A stretch of 64,000 bases of DNA from the NCBI RefSeq assembly GCF_002210435.1, contig NZ_MZMV01000023.1, forward strand, positions 1-64,000, read 5' to 3'. Of the stretch, positions 17,514 to 30,506 are shown one piece after another. Origin of the DNA: Micromonospora wenchangensis. GTDB lineage: Bacteria; Actinomycetota; Actinomycetes; Mycobacteriales; Micromonosporaceae. The position numbers and the translations under genes were made by a program. Below the pieces are notes generated by a model that was not told where the DNA came from, ran no database searches, and saw only the letters and a program-made list of their open reading frames with translations. The stretch's first letter is position 1; each line of letters begins with the position of its first letter.

Positions 17514-18146
17514 CTACGGGTCGGCGAAAGCGCCCGCGCGGGCGGCGGTGGTCGCGCTGCGGGCGACACGGTCGGGAAGGTCCGCGTCCGTCGCCGCCCG
17601 CAGGAGTACGAGCTCGTGGTACAGCGGGGCGGTGGTGGCGATGAGCAGTCGGCGCGCATCGGTGCCCGCCGGGACCTCACCGCGGTCGACGGCGCGGCGG
17701 GTGATGTCCGCGCAGCGGTCGTACCGGCCGGCCCAGAAGGCGCTCAAGGCCCGGGCGGCCCGCTCCGACCGGAAGGACGCGGCGATCAGCGCGACGGTCA
17801 CCGGGTCGGTGGTCAGGGCGGTGTAGACCTCGCGGTTGACCGCGACCAGGTCACCTTCGAGCGATCCCGTGTCGGGGGGACGCCAGGCGTCGGCACCCGC
17901 TTCGTTGAGGACGTCGGCGAGCAGGCCACCGACGTCCCGCCAACGCCGGTAGACCGTCGTGCGGTGGACACCCGAGCGCTCGGCGACCACCTCGATGCTC
18001 AGGGAGTCGTAGCCGTGCTGCACCAACTGGGCGAGCGCGGCGTCGAGGACGCGGCGGCGGACCGCCGCGCTGCGCCCGCCGGGTCGACGCGTGGGAGCGG
18101 TCACCAGCTCGTCGGGGTGATCGCTTGTCGGTCGTGGCGACGCCAT
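17514..18146 (-). CDS. TetR-family regulator of the Vat/Vgb-like pair
   Basis: A 210-aa TetR protein. Its HTH, VLDAALAQLVQHGYDSLSIEVVAERSGVHRTTVYRRW, begins after about 30 residues of Pro/Arg-rich tail, and the C-terminus is an AcrR-type helical domain. It diverges from the acetyltransferase/lyase operon across 48 bp holding a nested inverted repeat. By analogy with antibiotic-responsive TetR repressors (family knowledge), it probably releases the operon when a ligand binds; a streptogramin or related macrolactone is the inferred ligand. Confidence 0.85.
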   Translation of the reverse strand: MASPRPTSDHPDELVTAPTRRPGGRSAAVRRRVLDAALAQLVQHGYDSLSIEVVAERSGVHRTTVYRRWRDVGGLLADVLNEAGADAWRPPDTGSLEGDLVAVNREVYTALTTDPVTVALIAASFRSERAARALSAFWAGRYDRCADITRRAVDRGEVPAGTDARRLLIATTAPLYHELVLLRAATDADLPDRVARSATTAARAGAFADP

Positions 18147-18194: not shown

Positions 18195-18851
18195 GTGACG
18201 CCCGACCCGACAGCCCTTCACCCGGTGGCGACGCATCCGCGTGTGGTGTTCCTCAAGCCGCTGGTCACCTCGCCCAGGATCGTCGTCGGGGACTACACGT
18301 ACTACGACGATCCCGACGACGCGACCGGCTTCGAGCAGCGCAACGTGCTCTACCACTTCGGGCCGGAACGGCTGGTCATCGGCAGGTTCTGCGCGATCGC
18401 GGCAGGAACCCGGTTCCTGATGGCCGGCGGCGACCACCCGGTCGCCGGCCCGTCCACCTTCCCGTTCACCCTCTTCGGCGGCGACTGGGCCGAACGGACC
18501 CTCGACGTCGTGACCGCCATGCCCAGCCGCGGCGACACCGTCGTCGGCAACGACGTGTGGTTCGGCTACCGCGCCACGGTCATGCCGGGCGTACGCATCG
18601 GCGACGGGGCGATCATCGCGGCCGGTGCGGTGGTCACCACCGACGTCGCGGCCTACACGATCGTCGGCGGGAATCCGGCCCGACCGATCCGGCAACGCTT
18701 CGGCGACGACGACATCGACCGGCTGCGACGGGCCGCGTGGTGGGACTGGCCCGCCGACCTGGTCACCCGGCACTGCCGCACCCTGATGGCCGGCACACCC
18801 GCCGAGATCGAACGCATCGCCGTCGCCAACGGACTGGAGCGGACCCCGTGA
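18195..18851 (+). CDS. Vat-like xenobiotic O-acetyltransferase (hexapeptide repeat)
   Basis: A 218-aa left-handed beta-helix acetyltransferase of the Vat/CatB type. The family marks are present: YTYYDDPDDATGFEQRNVLYHFG near the N-terminus, IGRFCAIAAGTRFLMAGGDHPV (the catalytic His region is usually MNGANH or GGDH), and the hexapeptide repeats TVVGNDVWFGYRATVMPGVRIGDGAIIAAGAVVTTDV ending in IVGGNPARPIRQRF, here read in pieces. Vat enzymes acetylate group A streptogramins with acetyl-CoA. The GTG start lies 13 bp past the operator. It overlaps the Vgb-like gene by 4 bp, which strongly supports a streptogramin A/B resistance role, although related enzymes use other substrates. Confidence 0.82.
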   Translation: MTPDPTALHPVATHPRVVFLKPLVTSPRIVVGDYTYYDDPDDATGFEQRNVLYHFGPERLVIGRFCAIAAGTRFLMAGGDHPVAGPSTFPFTLFGGDWAERTLDVVTAMPSRGDTVVGNDVWFGYRATVMPGVRIGDGAIIAAGAVVTTDVAAYTIVGGNPARPIRQRFGDDDIDRLRRAAWWDWPADLVTRHCRTLMAGTPAEIERIAVANGLERTP

Positions 18852-19765
18852 CCGTCGTCATCCAGGAACACCCGGTGACCGACGCCGGTAGCGGCCTGTA
18901 CGGCGTCACCACCGGACCCGACGGCGCACTGTGGTTCACGCTCGCCCACAGCGGCCAGGTCGGACGTGTGGTCCCGGGCGAGGCACCCACCACCTACCCC
19001 GTCGACCCCGCCGGACAGCCCACGATCATCGTTCCCGGCCCCGACGGCGCGCTGTGGTTCACCGAGTCCCGGGCCCACCGCGTCGGGAGGATCACCACCG
19101 ACGGCGAGACCACCCGGTTCCGCGTACCCGGCCGCGACGGCGGGCCGTACGGCATCGCGCCCGGGCCCGACGCCGCCCTGTGGTTCACCGAGATGAACGC
19201 CGACCGCGTCGGCCGGATCACCACCGACGGTGAGGTCACCGAGTTCCCGCTCCCGGTCACCGGCGCCTACCCGTCGGCCATCACGGCCGGCCCCGACGGC
19301 GCCATGTGGTTCACCATGAACCAGGCGAACGCGATCGGCCGGATCGACACCACCGACGGCACCGTCACCGTGCACCCGCTACCGACGGAAGCCGCCGCCC
19401 CGGTGGGGATCACCGCCGGCCCCGACGCGGCCGTCTGGTTCGTCGAGATCGCCGCCGGCCAGATCGGGCGGATCACCCCCGACGGCACGATCGACGAGTT
19501 TGCGCTACCCGACCGCGCCGGCCGCCCGCACGCCATCACTACCAGCGGCAGCGGCGACCTGTGGTTCACCGAGTGGGCGGGTAACCGGGTCGGCTCCATC
19601 ACCACCGACGGGACGATCGCGGTCCACGACCTGCCCACCCCGCGCTCCGAGCCGCACGGCATCACCGTCGGACCCGACGACGCCCTGTGGACGGCCCTGG
19701 AGAACGGCACCCTGGCCCGCATCTGGTCGACCGACGGGCGGCCGCGTGCCGTAACCGGTGGTTGA
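18848..19765 (+). CDS. vgb: Virginiamycin B lyase-like protein (Vgb)
   Basis: A 305-aa seven-bladed propeller, close to the size of known Vgb (about 295-300 aa). Repeats of the form GPDGALWFTE-x-x-x-x-x-VGRITTDG recur through the protein. Late blades carry RPHAITT with LWFTEWAGNRVG and EPHGITVGPDDALWTALENG, matching the positions of the catalytic His and Glu residues of Vgb. Vgb linearises group B streptogramins by eliminating the ester bond, with a metal ion. The GTG start overlaps the acetyltransferase stop (GTGA), so the two are translated together. Confidence 0.83.
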   Translation: MTVVIQEHPVTDAGSGLYGVTTGPDGALWFTLAHSGQVGRVVPGEAPTTYPVDPAGQPTIIVPGPDGALWFTESRAHRVGRITTDGETTRFRVPGRDGGPYGIAPGPDAALWFTEMNADRVGRITTDGEVTEFPLPVTGAYPSAITAGPDGAMWFTMNQANAIGRIDTTDGTVTVHPLPTEAAAPVGITAGPDAAVWFVEIAAGQIGRITPDGTIDEFALPDRAGRPHAITTSGSGDLWFTEWAGNRVGSITTDGTIAVHDLPTPRSEPHGITVGPDDALWTALENGTLARIWSTDGRPRAVTGG

Positions 19766-20333: not shown

Positions 20334-20490
20334 CCGGCCGGGACGAGGCGGTTCGCCATCCGGTGGTCGAGCGGTCCACCCGACTCCAGGACCGGCGTGT
20401 CGCTCCAGGCATCGACGGGGTCGTCGTACCGGTAGTCACGATGTCGCTGAGCACAGGCTCGCACCGGCACGGCCGAAGCGTCGTACCGGC

Positions 20491-20802
20491 TCACTCGTCT
20501 TCGATGTATCCGGTGCCGGGGTCGACGGTGTCCAGGAAGTCGCGGATGTTCCTGGTGTGCTCGTCAGGCGACAGGTTCGTCGTCGGGCTGACGCCGAAGC
20601 CGTAGCCGGGGTTCGGCCCGCTGACCCAGGCGTAGTCGGTGCCGCCGAAAGCGTTCGGCCTGAGCACGAAGGTCTCCCCATCGACCTCGATAGTGCGGGA
20701 CGTGGCGTCGGCCGAACCCGCGGGTTCGGGGCGCAGACCGGGCACCGCCCCGGGGTTCGCCTTCCGGTCTCCACCGCCGTCGTCAGGGTAGATCGCCTTC
20801 AC
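20491..20802 (-). CDS. Small hypothetical protein
   Basis: A 103-aa acidic protein starting at GTG 20802 (MKAIYPDDGGGDRKANPG). It has a Gly-rich middle (NAFGGTDYAWVSGPNPGYGFG) and the acidic end FLDTVDPGTGYIEDE. The codon bias is coding-like, but the ribosome site is weak and longer frames upstream overlap the next gene's promoter. No homology is recognised, and it has no signal peptide or membrane segment. Confidence 0.55.
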   Translation of the reverse strand: MKAIYPDDGGGDRKANPGAVPGLRPEPAGSADATSRTIEVDGETFVLRPNAFGGTDYAWVSGPNPGYGFGVSPTTNLSPDEHTRNIRDFLDTVDPGTGYIEDE

Positions 20803-21016
20803 GCCACCATCATCGCGTGCCCATCCCCTCGGCGTACGCGTCCGGCCCCGGTCCGCTCGTGACGTCGACGGTGCCGGGGTGGGTGCCGAAGCGGATGCGG
20901 TCAAGCTGCCCGCAGGGGCAACCCGGACTGCCCGCAGGACCGGCCGGCGACCGGGGCACGGGCCGGCAGATCCGGCGCATGCTCGTGCCGACCAGCCCAC
21001 CGACCGGGAGACAGGC

Positions 21017-22414
21017 GTGCATCCGCATCAGGACGTCCAGCCGGCGCCATGGCAACACACGTTCGCCACGACCTTCGCCTGGCTCGCCGAGCACGAGCCG
21101 GCGTACTTCCAGCGCCTCACCTGGGCCGAGACCCAGCAGAACGGCACCTGCCTGGCGATGTTCCATGCCTGGGCCGACGAGCAGGCCGCCCACACCGGCG
21201 TCGACCAGCTGCGCCGTAGCCTGGCCACGATCACGCTGCTCCAGCAGCACGCCAGCGGGCAACTGGACCGGGACCACCTCGTCGTCGCGCTGGTGGACAC
21301 CGTCCGGCCGCCGTGGGTCGACCACCCCCTGGCGGTGGCGTTCCGGGAGGTCGATCCGACGCTCGTCGCGGAGTTCGCACAGATCGACGACATGTACGCG
21401 CTGGTCGCCCGGTTGGCGCAGGTGTTCGAGGTAGACACCGGGTTCACGTTCGCCCTCTGGTCGGTCGCCGCCGAGGCCCTCGCCGGCGAGGTCGCCGAGG
21501 CGTACCTGCCGTACTTCGCCGCGGCCTGCGACGAGCACCTGCAGCAGTGGTATCTGACCGCCACCGTCGCGCAGCCGGACCTGCCCGGTCAGCCCGGCGG
21601 CCCGGCACCTGACGGCGGCGACCAGCCGGCGCCCCGATGGCTGGACTACCTGGAACCGGCCCAGTTCCCGCAGGCGCTGGCGGACTGCCCGGACCTCGCC
21701 ACCGACATCGCCGACTACAACACGCAGGCGTACGCGTTCAACCTCGCCGGGCCGTACCAGGAGGAGTACCGGTCGTCGGTGCACGATGCCATCGCCCGCG
21801 TCCTGGCCTGGTACGCCCACCGCCAACCGATGATCCTGGGTCGCCTCCAGGCGTTCGGCGGGCCGCAGGGGCAGCCCGACGATCCGGCGACCGCCCACCT
21901 GCTGGCCCTCGCCCCCGAGTGGGAGCAGCTCCGCCAGGCCTGCGGGCACCTCACCGCCGCCCTCGAACCCGGCTTCACCGGATATCCGCCGGCCCAACCG
22001 ATACCGGTTCGGGAACAGATCGCGGCGGCGGCACGGGCCCGACTGTCGGCCAGGGAGAACCGGCAGGACGCGGCGGAACCGCCGAAACCTGTCGAAGCGC
22101 CGAGGGTCGTCGAGGCTCCGCGCCCACCATCACGCCGGCCCGAACGGGGCGAGCAGCACGGACGGTCACCTATGGGCGGCATCACCGACGAGCAGTGGCG
22201 GCAGGTCGCGGCGGTCCTGCCGGGCGGCAACTCGCAGCGGAGCCGGCTGTACGACCTCCGGCTGATCGTGGAAGCGATCTACCACCGCAAACGCACCGGC
22301 TGCACCTGGTCGAACATGCCGGCGCACTATCCACCCGGCCCGAGAGTCTCCAACTACCAGTCGACCTGGGAGCGTGACGGCACCATGCGCCTGATCGAGG
22401 CGATCCTGGGCTAG
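21017..22414 (+). CDS. Uncharacterised protein fused to an IS5-type transposase N-terminal (DUF4096-like) domain
   Basis: A 465-aa protein. Residues 1 to about 335 are soluble, mainly helical, acidic and Trp-rich (for example FATTFAWLAEHEPAYFQRLTWAE), and I do not recognise them. A Pro/Arg linker follows (about 345-385). Residues 386-465 match the N-terminal domain of IS5-family transposases: ITDEQWRQVAAVLP, LYDLRLIVEAIYHRKRTGCTW and PGPRVSNYQSTWERDGTM. The protein stops there, and no DDE catalytic domain follows in any frame. The GTG start has GGGAGA upstream. I infer a domesticated DNA-binding domain; the reading frame is intact, so this is not simple decay. Confidence 0.7.
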   Translation: MHPHQDVQPAPWQHTFATTFAWLAEHEPAYFQRLTWAETQQNGTCLAMFHAWADEQAAHTGVDQLRRSLATITLLQQHASGQLDRDHLVVALVDTVRPPWVDHPLAVAFREVDPTLVAEFAQIDDMYALVARLAQVFEVDTGFTFALWSVAAEALAGEVAEAYLPYFAAACDEHLQQWYLTATVAQPDLPGQPGGPAPDGGDQPAPRWLDYLEPAQFPQALADCPDLATDIADYNTQAYAFNLAGPYQEEYRSSVHDAIARVLAWYAHRQPMILGRLQAFGGPQGQPDDPATAHLLALAPEWEQLRQACGHLTAALEPGFTGYPPAQPIPVREQIAAAARARLSARENRQDAAEPPKPVEAPRVVEAPRPPSRRPERGEQHGRSPMGGITDEQWRQVAAVLPGGNSQRSRLYDLRLIVEAIYHRKRTGCTWSNMPAHYPPGPRVSNYQSTWERDGTMRLIEAILG

Positions 22415-22529
22415 GCTGCCCCGGCCAGATTCTCCGGACCGGCTCGCCGGGCGACGATCGACAGGTCTGGCCGTCAGCGCCACGGTAGGTGTCGCTCAGC
22501 GTGGTTACCGGACGTCTCCGTCGACGGGC

Positions 22530-26374: not shown

Positions 26375-27346
26375 ATGTTCGATCTGCGGCGACTCCGCCT
26401 GCTTTCCCATTTCGCCTCCCTGGGCACGGTCAGTGCGGTCGCAAAATCGGCGCAGCTGACTCCCTCTGCGGTGTCCCAGCAGCTTGCGACCCTGGAAAAG
26501 GAAATTGGCATGCCCTTGCTGGAGCGCAAGGGCCGTCAACTGACCCTGACTGAGGCCGGGCGGGTGCTGGTCAGCAGCGCCGAGCGCATCTTCGCCGAGG
26601 TGGAGCGGGCCAAGACCGAGCTCGCGCATCTGCGGGACGGCGTCGAAGGCGTCGTGCAGTTGGCGTCCTTTCCGAGCGTCTCCCGACTGGTGGTCCCGCA
26701 GGCCCTCGCGTTCTGCGTGAACAAGAAACGCCCGGTCGAGATCGGCCTGCACGAGATGGAGGCCCACGAGAGCCTGCCGGCGTTGCGCCGTGGAGAGATC
26801 GACCTGGCGCTGATCGACGAGTACGACCCGTTGCCGGCGCTGGTCGAGCCCGGGACCGAGTTCACCCCCTTGTTCAGCGAACAGATGTGTCTCGTCCTCC
26901 CGACGAAACACCCGCTCGCCCGGCCGGCGCTCCCCATGACCGCGTACGCGGCCGAGCCGTGGCTGACCTGCCAGGTGGGCACCCTGTGCCACGCGGCCAT
27001 GGTCAGCACCTGCGTCGACGCCGGGTTCACGCCCGAGATCGCGTACATGAGCAACGACTTCACCGTCATGCTGGCCATGATCGAGGCCGGTCTGGGCATC
27101 GGGTTCGTGCCGGCGATCACCATCGCCCAGAGCCGGTACGACGTGCGGTGCCTGGTGCTGGCCGAGCGCCCGTTACGCCGACGGATCTCGGTGGCGGTGC
27201 GCAGCGCCGCCCGCAGCCGGCCCACGCTGCGGCGGCTGATCAACGCGTTCACTGCGGTCACCGCCAATCTGGACGACACCATCAGGCTCGGCACTACCGT
27301 TGCGGGCCCGGCTGACGGTGGGCGGGGGACGGTGCTGCACCACTGA
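26375..27346 (+). CDS. LysR-family transcriptional regulator
   Basis: A 323-aa regulator. The HTH is MFDLRRLRLLSHFASLGTVSAVAKSAQLTPSAVSQQLATLEKEIGMPLLER, read in pieces, and the effector domain contains DLALIDEYDPLPALVEPGTEF and SEQMCLVLPTKHPL. It is divergent from the EamA exporter and convergent with the NRPS gene, overlapping its 3' end by 53 bp, so transcription of the two could interfere. I infer that it controls the exporter and possibly the NRPS locus. Confidence 0.9.
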   Translation: MFDLRRLRLLSHFASLGTVSAVAKSAQLTPSAVSQQLATLEKEIGMPLLERKGRQLTLTEAGRVLVSSAERIFAEVERAKTELAHLRDGVEGVVQLASFPSVSRLVVPQALAFCVNKKRPVEIGLHEMEAHESLPALRRGEIDLALIDEYDPLPALVEPGTEFTPLFSEQMCLVLPTKHPLARPALPMTAYAAEPWLTCQVGTLCHAAMVSTCVDAGFTPEIAYMSNDFTVMLAMIEAGLGIGFVPAITIAQSRYDVRCLVLAERPLRRRISVAVRSAARSRPTLRRLINAFTAVTANLDDTIRLGTTVAGPADGGRGTVLHH

Positions 27347-30300
27347 CCGCCCCGGCGGCGCAGGCAAGCGCCAGCTCGTCCAGTACGGTCCGTAGGTGCG
27401 TCCGGAGGCGACGCGCCGACGACTCGTCCAGCCCGTCGGCGGGCGAGGGGGCCCAGCTCAGCCACACGGCCAACTGGTCGTCGAGGACCACGGCCGACAC
27501 CTCCACCGGGTAGGGCCGCTCGGCACGTGGAGAGCGCGCCTCCCACGGCACGGGCGTGCCGTCGGTCCGGAACCGGTCGCCGGGCGGGCCGAGGTCACCC
27601 CGGCCCAGGTAGTTGAAGCAGACCAGAGCCGGCGGCGTCGCCCGAAGTGCCGCCGCCGTCCCCGCGTCGCCGGCGTGACGGCGCAGGACGCCGTAGCCGG
27701 TACCGCCGTGCGGCACCGCCGCCAACGCCGCCCGCGCGGGGGCCAACTCGGTGGCCAGGTCGGTCGACGGCGCGCTGGGCCAGGCAACCGGGAAGACGGC
27801 GGTGAACCACCCGACCACCCTGTCCAGTCGCGGCCACCGGTGCCGGCCGTGGGTTTCCAGGTCGAACGTCACGGCACCGTCCGGACGCCAGCGGGCGAGG
27901 GCGAGCCCGACGGCCGCCGCCATGACGTCGTGGACGCACATGCCGAGCCGGACCGGAGCCGGACCGAGCAACTGCCGGGTCGTCGCGGCCGGGACCCGGA
28001 ACGTCAGGAGTTCTCCGGCCTGCTCGGGCCGGGCCGCGCCGCGCGCCGCCAGGCCCGGTGCCGCCTGCCGCAGGCGTAGAACGGAGAGCCAGTAGGCCGC
28101 CTCGTCGAGGTCCGTGCCGAGTGGCGGCAGGGCTTCGACCCAGCCCTGGAAGGTCTCTGCCTGCGCCGGAAGCGAGGGTTCCTCACCGCGTTCGAGGGCG
28201 TCCAGCGCGACCACCAGGTCGTCGAGGAGCACGTGCCAGGAGACGATGTCGACGACGAGGTGGTGGATCGCGACGACGAGGTACATGGCGTCGCCCGCCC
28301 GGTCGTGGATCAGCAACGCCCTCAGGTGGTCGCCGGTGGACGGGTCGAGGGACCGGTGCAGCCGGTCGACGGCGGCGTCGCGCTCGGCGGTGCCGGTCAC
28401 GTCGAGGGTGCGTACCAGCCGGTCGGAGGTGATCCGGTCGTCGGGCACCATCCGCACCCCGGTCCCGTCGTCGACGAAGCGGGCGCGCAGGGCGGGGTGC
28501 GCTGCCAGGAGGTCCCGGAGCGCGGCCTCCAGGTGCGCCGGGGTGAGCGGCCGGAGCACGCGGAGCCGCACGAACATGTTCCAGTACGTCCGGTCCGTGC
28601 GGACCCGTTCGGTGAACCAGTCGTGGACCGGCGCCGTAGCCGTCGGGGCCGTGGCCGGGCGGGTGCCGCCGGACTCCGGCGGCACCGGTCGGGCCGGGGA
28701 GCTGCCCAGGTAGGCGACCAGGTCCGCCAGCACCGGGTGGGACAGGAACTCGGCCACGGAGATCGCCACGCCGGCCCGGCGTAGCCGGGCCACCACCCGC
28801 ATGGCGAGGAGGGAGTCGCCCCCCTCGTGCAGGAAGTGGCTGTCGTCCGTCGGTGGCGGGCCGCCCAGCGCCTCGGTGAAGCAGCGGCGGACCAGCTCCG
28901 CCACCGGGGTGTCCTGTCGCAGCGGGGTGACCGGCCGGCCCCCGGGCGACCGGGGGGTGGGGGCCGACGGGTGCAGCCGGGCCAGGGCCAGCCGGTCGGT
29001 CTTCCCGTTGGACAGCAGGGGGATGCTCGCCACCGGCACGAGACGGGCGGGGAGCATGCGTCCGGGCAACCACGCCGCGAGCGCGGTACGCAGGCCCGTG
29101 GTGGTGAGGTGACCCGTCGGGTCGAACTCCACGAAGGCCGACAGTTCGGGGGCCCCGTCGGGGTCCCGTTCCCGTACGGTGACCGCCACCGCGCGGACGC
29201 CCGGCACATCGAGGATGGCGGACTCAACCTCGCCGAGCTCGATCCGCTGTCCTGCGATCTTGATCTGGTCGTCGACCCGGCCCAGGTAGAGCAGGTCCCC
29301 ACCGGGCAGGCGGCGGACCAGGTCACCGGTGCGGTAGACCCGGTCGGTCCGCCCCTCACCGAGGTCGACGTGGTGGAACCGTTCCCGGGTGCGTTCGTCG
29401 TCGTCCAGGTAGCCGTCCGCCAGGCTCTCCCCGCCGATGTGCAGCTCGCCGGTCTGACCGTCGGGCACCGGCCGTCCGGCGTCGTCCAGGACGTAGCACC
29501 GGACGTTGTCCAGCGGCCGTCCGATCGGGACGGTGGCCTGCTCCGCCAGGGCGGCGGCGTTCTCGGGCACCGCCCGGTAGGCGGTCGCGTACGCGGTCTC
29601 GGTCGGGCCGTAGAAGTTGTAGAGCGGTTCCCGGCGGACGCTGTGGAAGGCCCGTTGCAGCGCGACCGGCAGCTTCTCGCCGGTGCTCATCACCGCCCGC
29701 AGGGACGTGTTCCGGACGAACGCCCCGGTCTCGGTCAACGCCCGGAGCTGCGCCGGGACGGTGTGCAGGACGGTGACCCGGTAGTCGTCGACGGTCGCTG
29801 CGAGCAGGTCGGGATCGCCCTCGGCACCGGGGGGCGCGACGACCAGACAGGCCCCGGCGGCCAGGGCGGAGAACATCTCGTACGCGCTCACGTCGAAGGT
29901 CAGCGGTGTCTTGAGCACGAGGGTGTCGTCGGGCCGTAGGCCGAAGGTGCGCACGCAGGCGCGGACGTTGTTCGCCACCGCACGCTGGCTGAGCCGCACG
30001 CCCTTCGGAGTTCCCGTGGAGCCCGAGGTGTAGAGGATGTGTGCGGTGCCGTCGGGGGTGGCGTCGCCCGACGACGGGGCGTCCGTCGTGGACGCCTCGG
30101 CCTCCACGAGCAGGTCGTCGAGGGCGACGTCCTGCCCGGGGCCGGGTGGTGCGGTGTGCCCACCTGCGGTGACCAGGAGGTGGACGCCGCTGTGCCGGCG
30201 GACGTATGCCAACCGCCTGACCGGGTGGCCGGGGTCCAGCGGGACGTAGGCCGCGCCCCGGCGCAGGACCGCGAGGACGAGCGCCACGCACTCGGCCGAC

Positions 30301-30506
30301 CGGGGCAGCAGCAGCCCGACCCGGGTGCCGGGGCCCACCCCGCGTTCGCGCAGCACGCCGGCCAACCGACGGACCCGCCGGTCCAGCTCGGTGTAGGTCC
30401 AGCTCCGTCCCGGGCCGCGCAGGGCGCAGCGGTCGGGATGGGCCTGCACGCTTCTGCGCAGCAGCGTGTCGACCGTCCCACCGGTGGGCGTCTCGTTGCC
30501 AGGCAC
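27294..30506 (-). CDS. Stand-alone NRPS module: adenylation-thiolation-epimerization
   Basis: A 1070-aa nonribosomal peptide synthetase. The A domain spans about 10-520, with A3 YTSGSTGTPKGV at 159-170, A5 NFYGPTETAY and A10 SNGKTDR. The T domain has HEGGDSLLAM with the phosphopantetheine Ser at 565. The C-terminal domain is an epimerase: IHHLVVDIVSW (748-757), ETHGR with VGWFT, and FNYLGRGD. No condensation, thioesterase or reductase domain is present. Aligned by eye to GrsA, the pocket residues are D205, V206, Y209, H248, M273, T275, F298, Y306, A307, K502; I do not recognise this code. GTG 30506 has AGGAGG 7 nt before it. It would load and epimerise one amino acid, then pass it on in trans. 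Confidence 0.9.
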   Translation of the reverse strand: MPGNETPTGGTVDTLLRRSVQAHPDRCALRGPGRSWTYTELDRRVRRLAGVLRERGVGPGTRVGLLLPRSAECVALVLAVLRRGAAYVPLDPGHPVRRLAYVRRHSGVHLLVTAGGHTAPPGPGQDVALDDLLVEAEASTTDAPSSGDATPDGTAHILYTSGSTGTPKGVRLSQRAVANNVRACVRTFGLRPDDTLVLKTPLTFDVSAYEMFSALAAGACLVVAPPGAEGDPDLLAATVDDYRVTVLHTVPAQLRALTETGAFVRNTSLRAVMSTGEKLPVALQRAFHSVRREPLYNFYGPTETAYATAYRAVPENAAALAEQATVPIGRPLDNVRCYVLDDAGRPVPDGQTGELHIGGESLADGYLDDDERTRERFHHVDLGEGRTDRVYRTGDLVRRLPGGDLLYLGRVDDQIKIAGQRIELGEVESAILDVPGVRAVAVTVRERDPDGAPELSAFVEFDPTGHLTTTGLRTALAAWLPGRMLPARLVPVASIPLLSNGKTDRLALARLHPSAPTPRSPGGRPVTPLRQDTPVAELVRRCFTEALGGPPPTDDSHFLHEGGDSLLAMRVVARLRRAGVAISVAEFLSHPVLADLVAYLGSSPARPVPPESGGTRPATAPTATAPVHDWFTERVRTDRTYWNMFVRLRVLRPLTPAHLEAALRDLLAAHPALRARFVDDGTGVRMVPDDRITSDRLVRTLDVTGTAERDAAVDRLHRSLDPSTGDHLRALLIHDRAGDAMYLVVAIHHLVVDIVSWHVLLDDLVVALDALERGEEPSLPAQAETFQGWVEALPPLGTDLDEAAYWLSVLRLRQAAPGLAARGAARPEQAGELLTFRVPAATTRQLLGPAPVRLGMCVHDVMAAAVGLALARWRPDGAVTFDLETHGRHRWPRLDRVVGWFTAVFPVAWPSAPSTDLATELAPARAALAAVPHGGTGYGVLRRHAGDAGTAAALRATPPALVCFNYLGRGDLGPPGDRFRTDGTPVPWEARSPRAERPYPVEVSAVVLDDQLAVWLSWAPSPADGLDESSARRLRTHLRTVLDELALACAAGAVSGAAPSPAHRQPGPQR

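What the first reader, a model, noticed from the sequence alone, without database searches (positions are those of the whole stretch)
21017..22414. Host protein ending in a domesticated IS5 transposase N-terminal domain
The last 80 residues match the DNA-binding N-terminal domain of IS5-type transposases, but a 335-residue unrelated domain precedes them and no catalytic domain follows. The frame is open with good codon bias, so it looks maintained instead of decaying.
Basis: partly seen in the sequence, partly recalled or inferred. Interest (0 to 1): 0.6.

Follow-up and report, generated by a model that had tools for sequence, protein, structure and literature searches.

The report
Roaming gene with captured transposase DNA-binder
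In three closely related Micromonospora species a gene of unknown function, sitting at a different chromosomal place in each, ends in the intact DNA-gripping part of an IS5 jumping-gene enzyme whose DNA-facing side is changing fast, which suggests a captured and retuned DNA-binding module.

Summary
Window 21017-22414 encodes a 465-residue protein whose residues 389-458 match the IS5 transposase N-terminal domain (PF13340, E 1.1e-16). No IS5 catalytic remnant follows, and residues 1-345 match no known family.

The fusion is not strain-specific. Full-length copies occur in the window species, in M. antibiotica and in a third Micromonospora species (83-89% protein identity). A fourth species has only the first ~155 residues. 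It occurs in 4 of 160 Micromonospora genomes, with no convincing homologue elsewhere.

First, "host gene" is doubtful. No neighbours are shared between the copies, and three relatives keep the M. antibiotica site empty, so the gene was inserted or relocated there. Second, the C-terminal domain is maintained but not conserved. ML omega is about 1.5, against 0.35 for the N-terminal part (p about 0.001). All seven variable positions of the predicted recognition helix lie on one face (p about 0.003, post hoc), while the helix core and most IS5 motif residues are kept.

Best explanation: a solitary accessory DNA-binding regulator made by transposase-domain capture, with shifting DNA specificity. 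DNA binding and function are inferred. Known kind (transposase capture), rarely described in bacteria.

The parts
20905..21016 (+). Conserved non-coding leader carried with the gene; contains palindrome TGCCC-GCAG-GGGCA (20907-20920) and a second TGCCCGCAGG about 22 bp on; Shine-Dalgarno-like GGGAGA just before the GTG
   Evidence: Aligned in all four loci including G088; 6-9 differences in 112 bp among the three fusions with no third-position bias; one palindrome match in the window, 0.29 expected; no Rfam hit and no unusual RNA fold
21017..22414 (+). Fusion gene, 465 aa
   Evidence: full-length relatives L008 (M. antibiotica) and L009 (G086)
21017..21481 (+). N-terminal module, residues 1-155, helical, no known family; also exists without the rest in G088
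   Evidence: 55% identical to the G088 protein; low-confidence all-helical model
21482..22051 (+). Residues 156-345, helical, orphan; possible weak internal repeat of the first module (not significant in all copies)
   Evidence: omega 0.35-0.50 by counting; repeat test
22052..22174 (+). Variable proline-rich linker, residues 346-386, with PRAVEV repeats in M. antibiotica
22175..22411 (+). IS5 transposase N-terminal DNA-binding domain (DUF4096), residues 387-465; predicted recognition helix residues 441-454 (about 22337-22378)
   Evidence: PF13340 E 1.1e-16; model pLDDT about 80-86 over most of the domain, loop 404-409 lower

Best explanation
A solitary accessory gene whose product is a sequence-specific DNA-binding regulator. 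An IS5 element contributed the N-terminal DNA-binding part of its transposase to the 3' end of an orphan helical-protein gene, and the catalytic part was lost. The helical part (unknown fold) would provide oligomerisation or an effector/partner surface, and the IS5 domain aims the protein at specific DNA, most likely repressing promoters or IS ends. SHOWN: the fusion, its presence in three species, absence of the catalytic domain, presence at unrelated places with an empty site in relatives, purifying selection on the N part, faster replacement in the C domain concentrated on one face of the predicted recognition helix. INFERRED: how the fusion arose, that it binds DNA, that the replacements change specificity, and that the effect is regulatory.
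For: IS5 domain with motif residues kept: T390, D391, W394, LP401-402, R415, I421, RTG426-428, W431, P435, PP439-440, W451, G455. Three-species fusion. N part ML omega 0.35, excluding 1 (2 delta lnL about 18); C domain ML omega about 1.5, and fixing it at the N value costs 2 delta lnL about 10.7, p about 0.001. Helix 441-454: 442, 443, 445, 446, 449, 450, 453 vary; 441, 444, 447, 448, 451, 452, 454 do not; one-face clustering p about 0.003. Fusion-variable positions are also the ones that vary more among IS5 transposases (p 0.004). Empty site of the M. antibiotica copy.
Against: C-domain omega is not significantly above 1, so relaxed constraint is not excluded. The helix-face test was done after seeing the data, on three sequences. 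Some IS5-conserved positions are altered (Y445 to S/A, F448 to Q), which could weaken binding. The N part has no known fold or function. G088 keeps the upstream palindrome but has no IS5 domain, so that palindrome is probably not this domain's operator. No target site is known.
Confidence: 0.5

Rival explanations
1. Transposon control: the protein binds the inverted repeats of IS5-family elements, competing with or silencing their transposases. Fast change of the recognition face would track changing IS ends.
For: The domain comes from IS5 transposases; IS5 copies are common in the genus (111 of 160 genomes gave a match, nearly all to the IS5 domain); replacements lie on one face of the predicted recognition helix.
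Against: No extant IS5 in these genomes has a closely related domain (about 40% identity at best); no link to IS load tested; the gene is rare in an IS-rich genus.
Confidence: 0.2
2. Decaying or neutral chimera: a transient fusion whose C domain is under relaxed constraint, in an accessory gene on its way out.
For: C-domain omega cannot be told from 1; restricted to four genomes; G088 copy is short.
Against: No stop or frameshift in any of the three fusions; motif residues and helix core kept, variable positions non-random; N part clearly under purifying selection.
Confidence: 0.2
3. The gene is the cargo or coding part of a mobile element, and the IS5 domain serves that element's own movement, for example by binding its ends for a transposase acting in trans.
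For: Homology block of gene plus leader at unrelated places; empty site; TAGCCG present on both sides of the M. antibiotica insert; weak IS982-like remnant (E 0.047) at its left edge.
Against: One copy per genome, no terminal inverted repeats recognised, left limits differ between copies, no catalytic domain. Movement could equally be horizontal transfer with illegitimate recombination.
Confidence: 0.1

Closest known systems
IS5-family transposases (PF13340 DUF4096 + DDE domain; NF033580)
   Same: The N-terminal DNA-binding domain with its motif residues
   Different: No catalytic domain, domain at the C-terminus of an unrelated protein, about 40% identity at best; every close DUF4096 match inspected was an ordinary IS5 transposase or a shortened IS5 fragment
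Eukaryotic host-transposase fusion genes and transposon-derived transcription factors (PMC10027918; F-box genes with captured Tc1/Mariner HTH, PMC12062965)
   Same: Capture of a transposase DNA-binding domain by another protein
   Different: Bacterial, different transposase superfamily, no shown function; gene is accessory and relocates
phrog_6657, phage protein family of unknown function with an IS5-type segment at profile positions about 306-439
   Same: An IS5 N-terminal segment joined to an unrelated N-terminal part
   Different: The segment there runs about 40 residues beyond DUF4096; the match to this protein covers only its C domain

Membership tests
IS5-family transposase | DUF4096-type N-terminal DNA-binding domain | tested here: met
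   PF13340 61.2 bits against cutoff 34.3
IS5-family transposase | DDE catalytic domain following it | tested here: not met
   NF033580 matched only at 5-78/258, 54.7 bits against cutoff 110; no catalytic fragment downstream by tblastn
IS5-family transposase | Flanking terminal inverted repeats and multicopy IS behaviour | tested here: inconclusive
   One copy per genome; aligned limits show no shared ends and left limits differ, but no dedicated inverted-repeat scan was run
Domesticated transposase-domain fusion (transposase capture) | Transposase domain in frame with unrelated protein, intact in several species | tested here: met
   Three species, 83-89% identity
Domesticated transposase-domain fusion (transposase capture) | Selective constraint on the captured domain | tested here: inconclusive
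   Omega about 1.5, not different from 1, but core positions kept
Domesticated transposase-domain fusion (transposase capture) | Stable host locus shared by descent | tested here: not met
   No synteny among four loci; empty site in three relatives
Domesticated transposase-domain fusion (transposase capture) | DNA binding and host function | not testable with these tools
   Needs experiment
Known anti-phage defence protein | Match to a described defence family | tested here: not met
   PADLOC no match up to E 10

The most novel reading that the evidence does not exclude
A bacterial counterpart of fast-evolving transposon-silencing DNA-binding proteins: a mobile accessory gene that turned an IS5 transposase DNA-binding domain into a repressor of IS elements, with its recognition helix under diversifying selection to follow changing IS ends.
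Probability: 0.12. Interest if true: 0.8.

Novelty: new variant of a known kind. Interest (0 to 1): 0.42.

Why it matters
Transposase-domain capture is well documented in eukaryotes, but I found no description of a bacterial fusion of this type in the literature searched here. If the captured domain binds DNA and its recognition face is being retuned, it would be a small, testable case of a new bacterial DNA-binding regulator being made from an insertion sequence, in a gene young enough that intermediate states may still exist among close species.

Tried and rejected
Wider homologues of the N part: none convincing in 355 Micromonosporaceae and 397 genomes of the order; the weak hits inspected were short or did not survive realignment, e.g. 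L043, where the hit overlaps an EAL-domain gene. Nothing in phages, viral contigs or PDB sequences. Structure models of the full protein and of residues 1-183 are low confidence for the N part (mean pLDDT about 45), so the fold comparison (best Z 6.0, helical bundles, mainly residues 244-458) tells nothing. Internal duplication in the N part: 0.006-0.25 by shuffling depending on copy, not claimed. Upstream region as a coding extension: rejected, substitutions show no codon-position bias. Upstream RNA element: no Rfam family, folding z-score +1. Empty site for the window and G086 copies: not found, those regions are not syntenic in relatives. Strong claim of positive selection: rejected, because ML omega for the C domain is not significantly above 1. 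Other C-terminal DUF4096 fusions among close domain matches: none; odd ones were shortened IS5 copies.

Full report
Observation. The ORF at 21017-22414 (+) begins with GTG after GGGAGA and encodes 465 residues. Residues 389-458 match PF13340 DUF4096, the N-terminal domain of IS4/5-type transposases, at E 1.1e-16, and positions 5-78 of the 258-position IS5 transposase model NF033580. Nothing of the catalytic domain is present in the gene or just downstream in the window, M. antibiotica or G086. Residues 1-345 match no known family.

Distribution. A full-length relative is in M. antibiotica MMS20-R2-23 (L008, 86% over 477 columns). No convincing N-part homologue occurs in 355 genomes of the family or 397 sampled from the order, nor in plasmids, phages or viral contigs. 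So the fusion is shared by species, not one strain. Whether the short G088 gene is the pre-fusion state or a truncation cannot be told.

Location. The four loci share no flanking genes; nucleotide homology between window and relatives around the gene is confined to about 20905-22427, the gene plus a 112-bp leader. For M. antibiotica the site is empty in relatives: the genes flanking it adjoin, with 38, 12 and 82 bp between the matches, in the window genome (contig C80), G086 and G060. In M. antibiotica about 1.8-1.9 kb lies between them, running from just after the upstream methyltransferase stop to about the fusion-gene stop, with TAGCCG at both edges; the short repeat may be a duplication or chance. 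A weak IS982-like fragment (E 0.047, far below cutoff) lies at the left edge. Those flanks are 86-97% identical among these genomes, so these are close species that hold the gene at different places. It is an accessory, relocating or transferred gene. No empty site could be shown for the other copies.

Selection. By counting, the C domain has 28 non-synonymous and 3 synonymous differences between the window and G086, against 40 and 25 in residues 1-345 (Fisher p 0.004; the other two pairs p 0.22 and 0.13). Codon ML with F3X4 frequencies gives omega about 0.35 for the N part, clearly below 1, and about 1.5 for the C domain, not distinguishable from 1 but different from 0.35 (2 delta lnL about 10.7). 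Replacements are not spread evenly: 9 of 12 positions in loop 403-414 and 12 of 24 in 430-453 vary, against 5 of 43 elsewhere. In the predicted recognition helix (441-454; pLDDT about 80-86 for most of the domain) the seven variable residues all fall on one face (p about 0.003, chosen after inspection). Positions variable among the fusions are also the more variable ones among IS5 transposases (p 0.004). Two IS5-conserved residues differ in the fusions (Y445 to S/A, F448 to Q). The pattern fits a kept scaffold with a changing DNA-facing surface; relaxed constraint remains possible. That helix 441-454 is the recognition helix is my inference from the predicted helix-turn-helix arrangement.

Leader. 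The 112 bp before the start are conserved in all four loci, including a palindrome TGCCC-N4-GGGCA, without codon-position bias, RNA family or unusual fold. Because G088 has the palindrome but no IS5 domain, it is probably bound by another factor, or is a promoter element.

Mechanism. The most likely reading is a DNA-binding regulator made by transposase-domain capture in a roaming accessory gene. The origin of the domain, the shared fusion and the unequal selection are shown; DNA binding, specificity change and regulatory effect are inferred. Rivals are control of IS5 elements, decay, and a role in the gene's own movement.

Known relatives. Capture of transposase DNA-binding domains is described in eukaryotes (PMC10027918, PMC12062965; abstracts seen). 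Full-text search for DUF4096 found two papers, neither about such a fusion by title and abstract, and the domestication searches listed no bacterial case of this type. It fails the definition of an IS5 transposase (no catalytic domain), meets the fusion criterion of transposase capture, and fails the criterion of a stable locus.

Noticed in passing
window 18195-19765 (+): Adjacent, overlapping genes resembling a Vat streptogramin A acetyltransferase (NF000311, E 1.6e-70, below cutoff) and a Vgb virginiamycin B lyase (PF24684, E 1.5e-138): a possible intrinsic two-gene streptogramin A/B inactivation pair.
   Followed up: partly
window 17514-18023 (-): Regulator with weak similarity to ScbR autoregulator-binding factors (E 3.7e-5), next to and divergent from the Vat/Vgb-like pair.
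   Followed up: no
window 20489-20818 (-): Small conserved gene of no Pfam family next to the fusion, with a second copy in the same genome (G000 contig C11:108554-108876) and relatives in several Micromonospora.
   Followed up: no
window 27294-30506 (-): 1070-residue protein with an amino acid adenylation region (TIGR01733, E 2.8e-121) at residues 37-442 followed by several hundred residues not identified here.
   Followed up: no
phrog_6657 profile positions 306-439: A phage protein family of unknown function seems to contain an IS5 N-terminal segment after about 300 other residues, perhaps another chimera made by IS insertion.
   Followed up: partly
L008 7616-7710: Possible IS982 transposase scrap (LRLHLVRTPSGLPITCALATPKVAERQ, E 0.047) at the left edge of the M. 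antibiotica insertion.
   Followed up: partly
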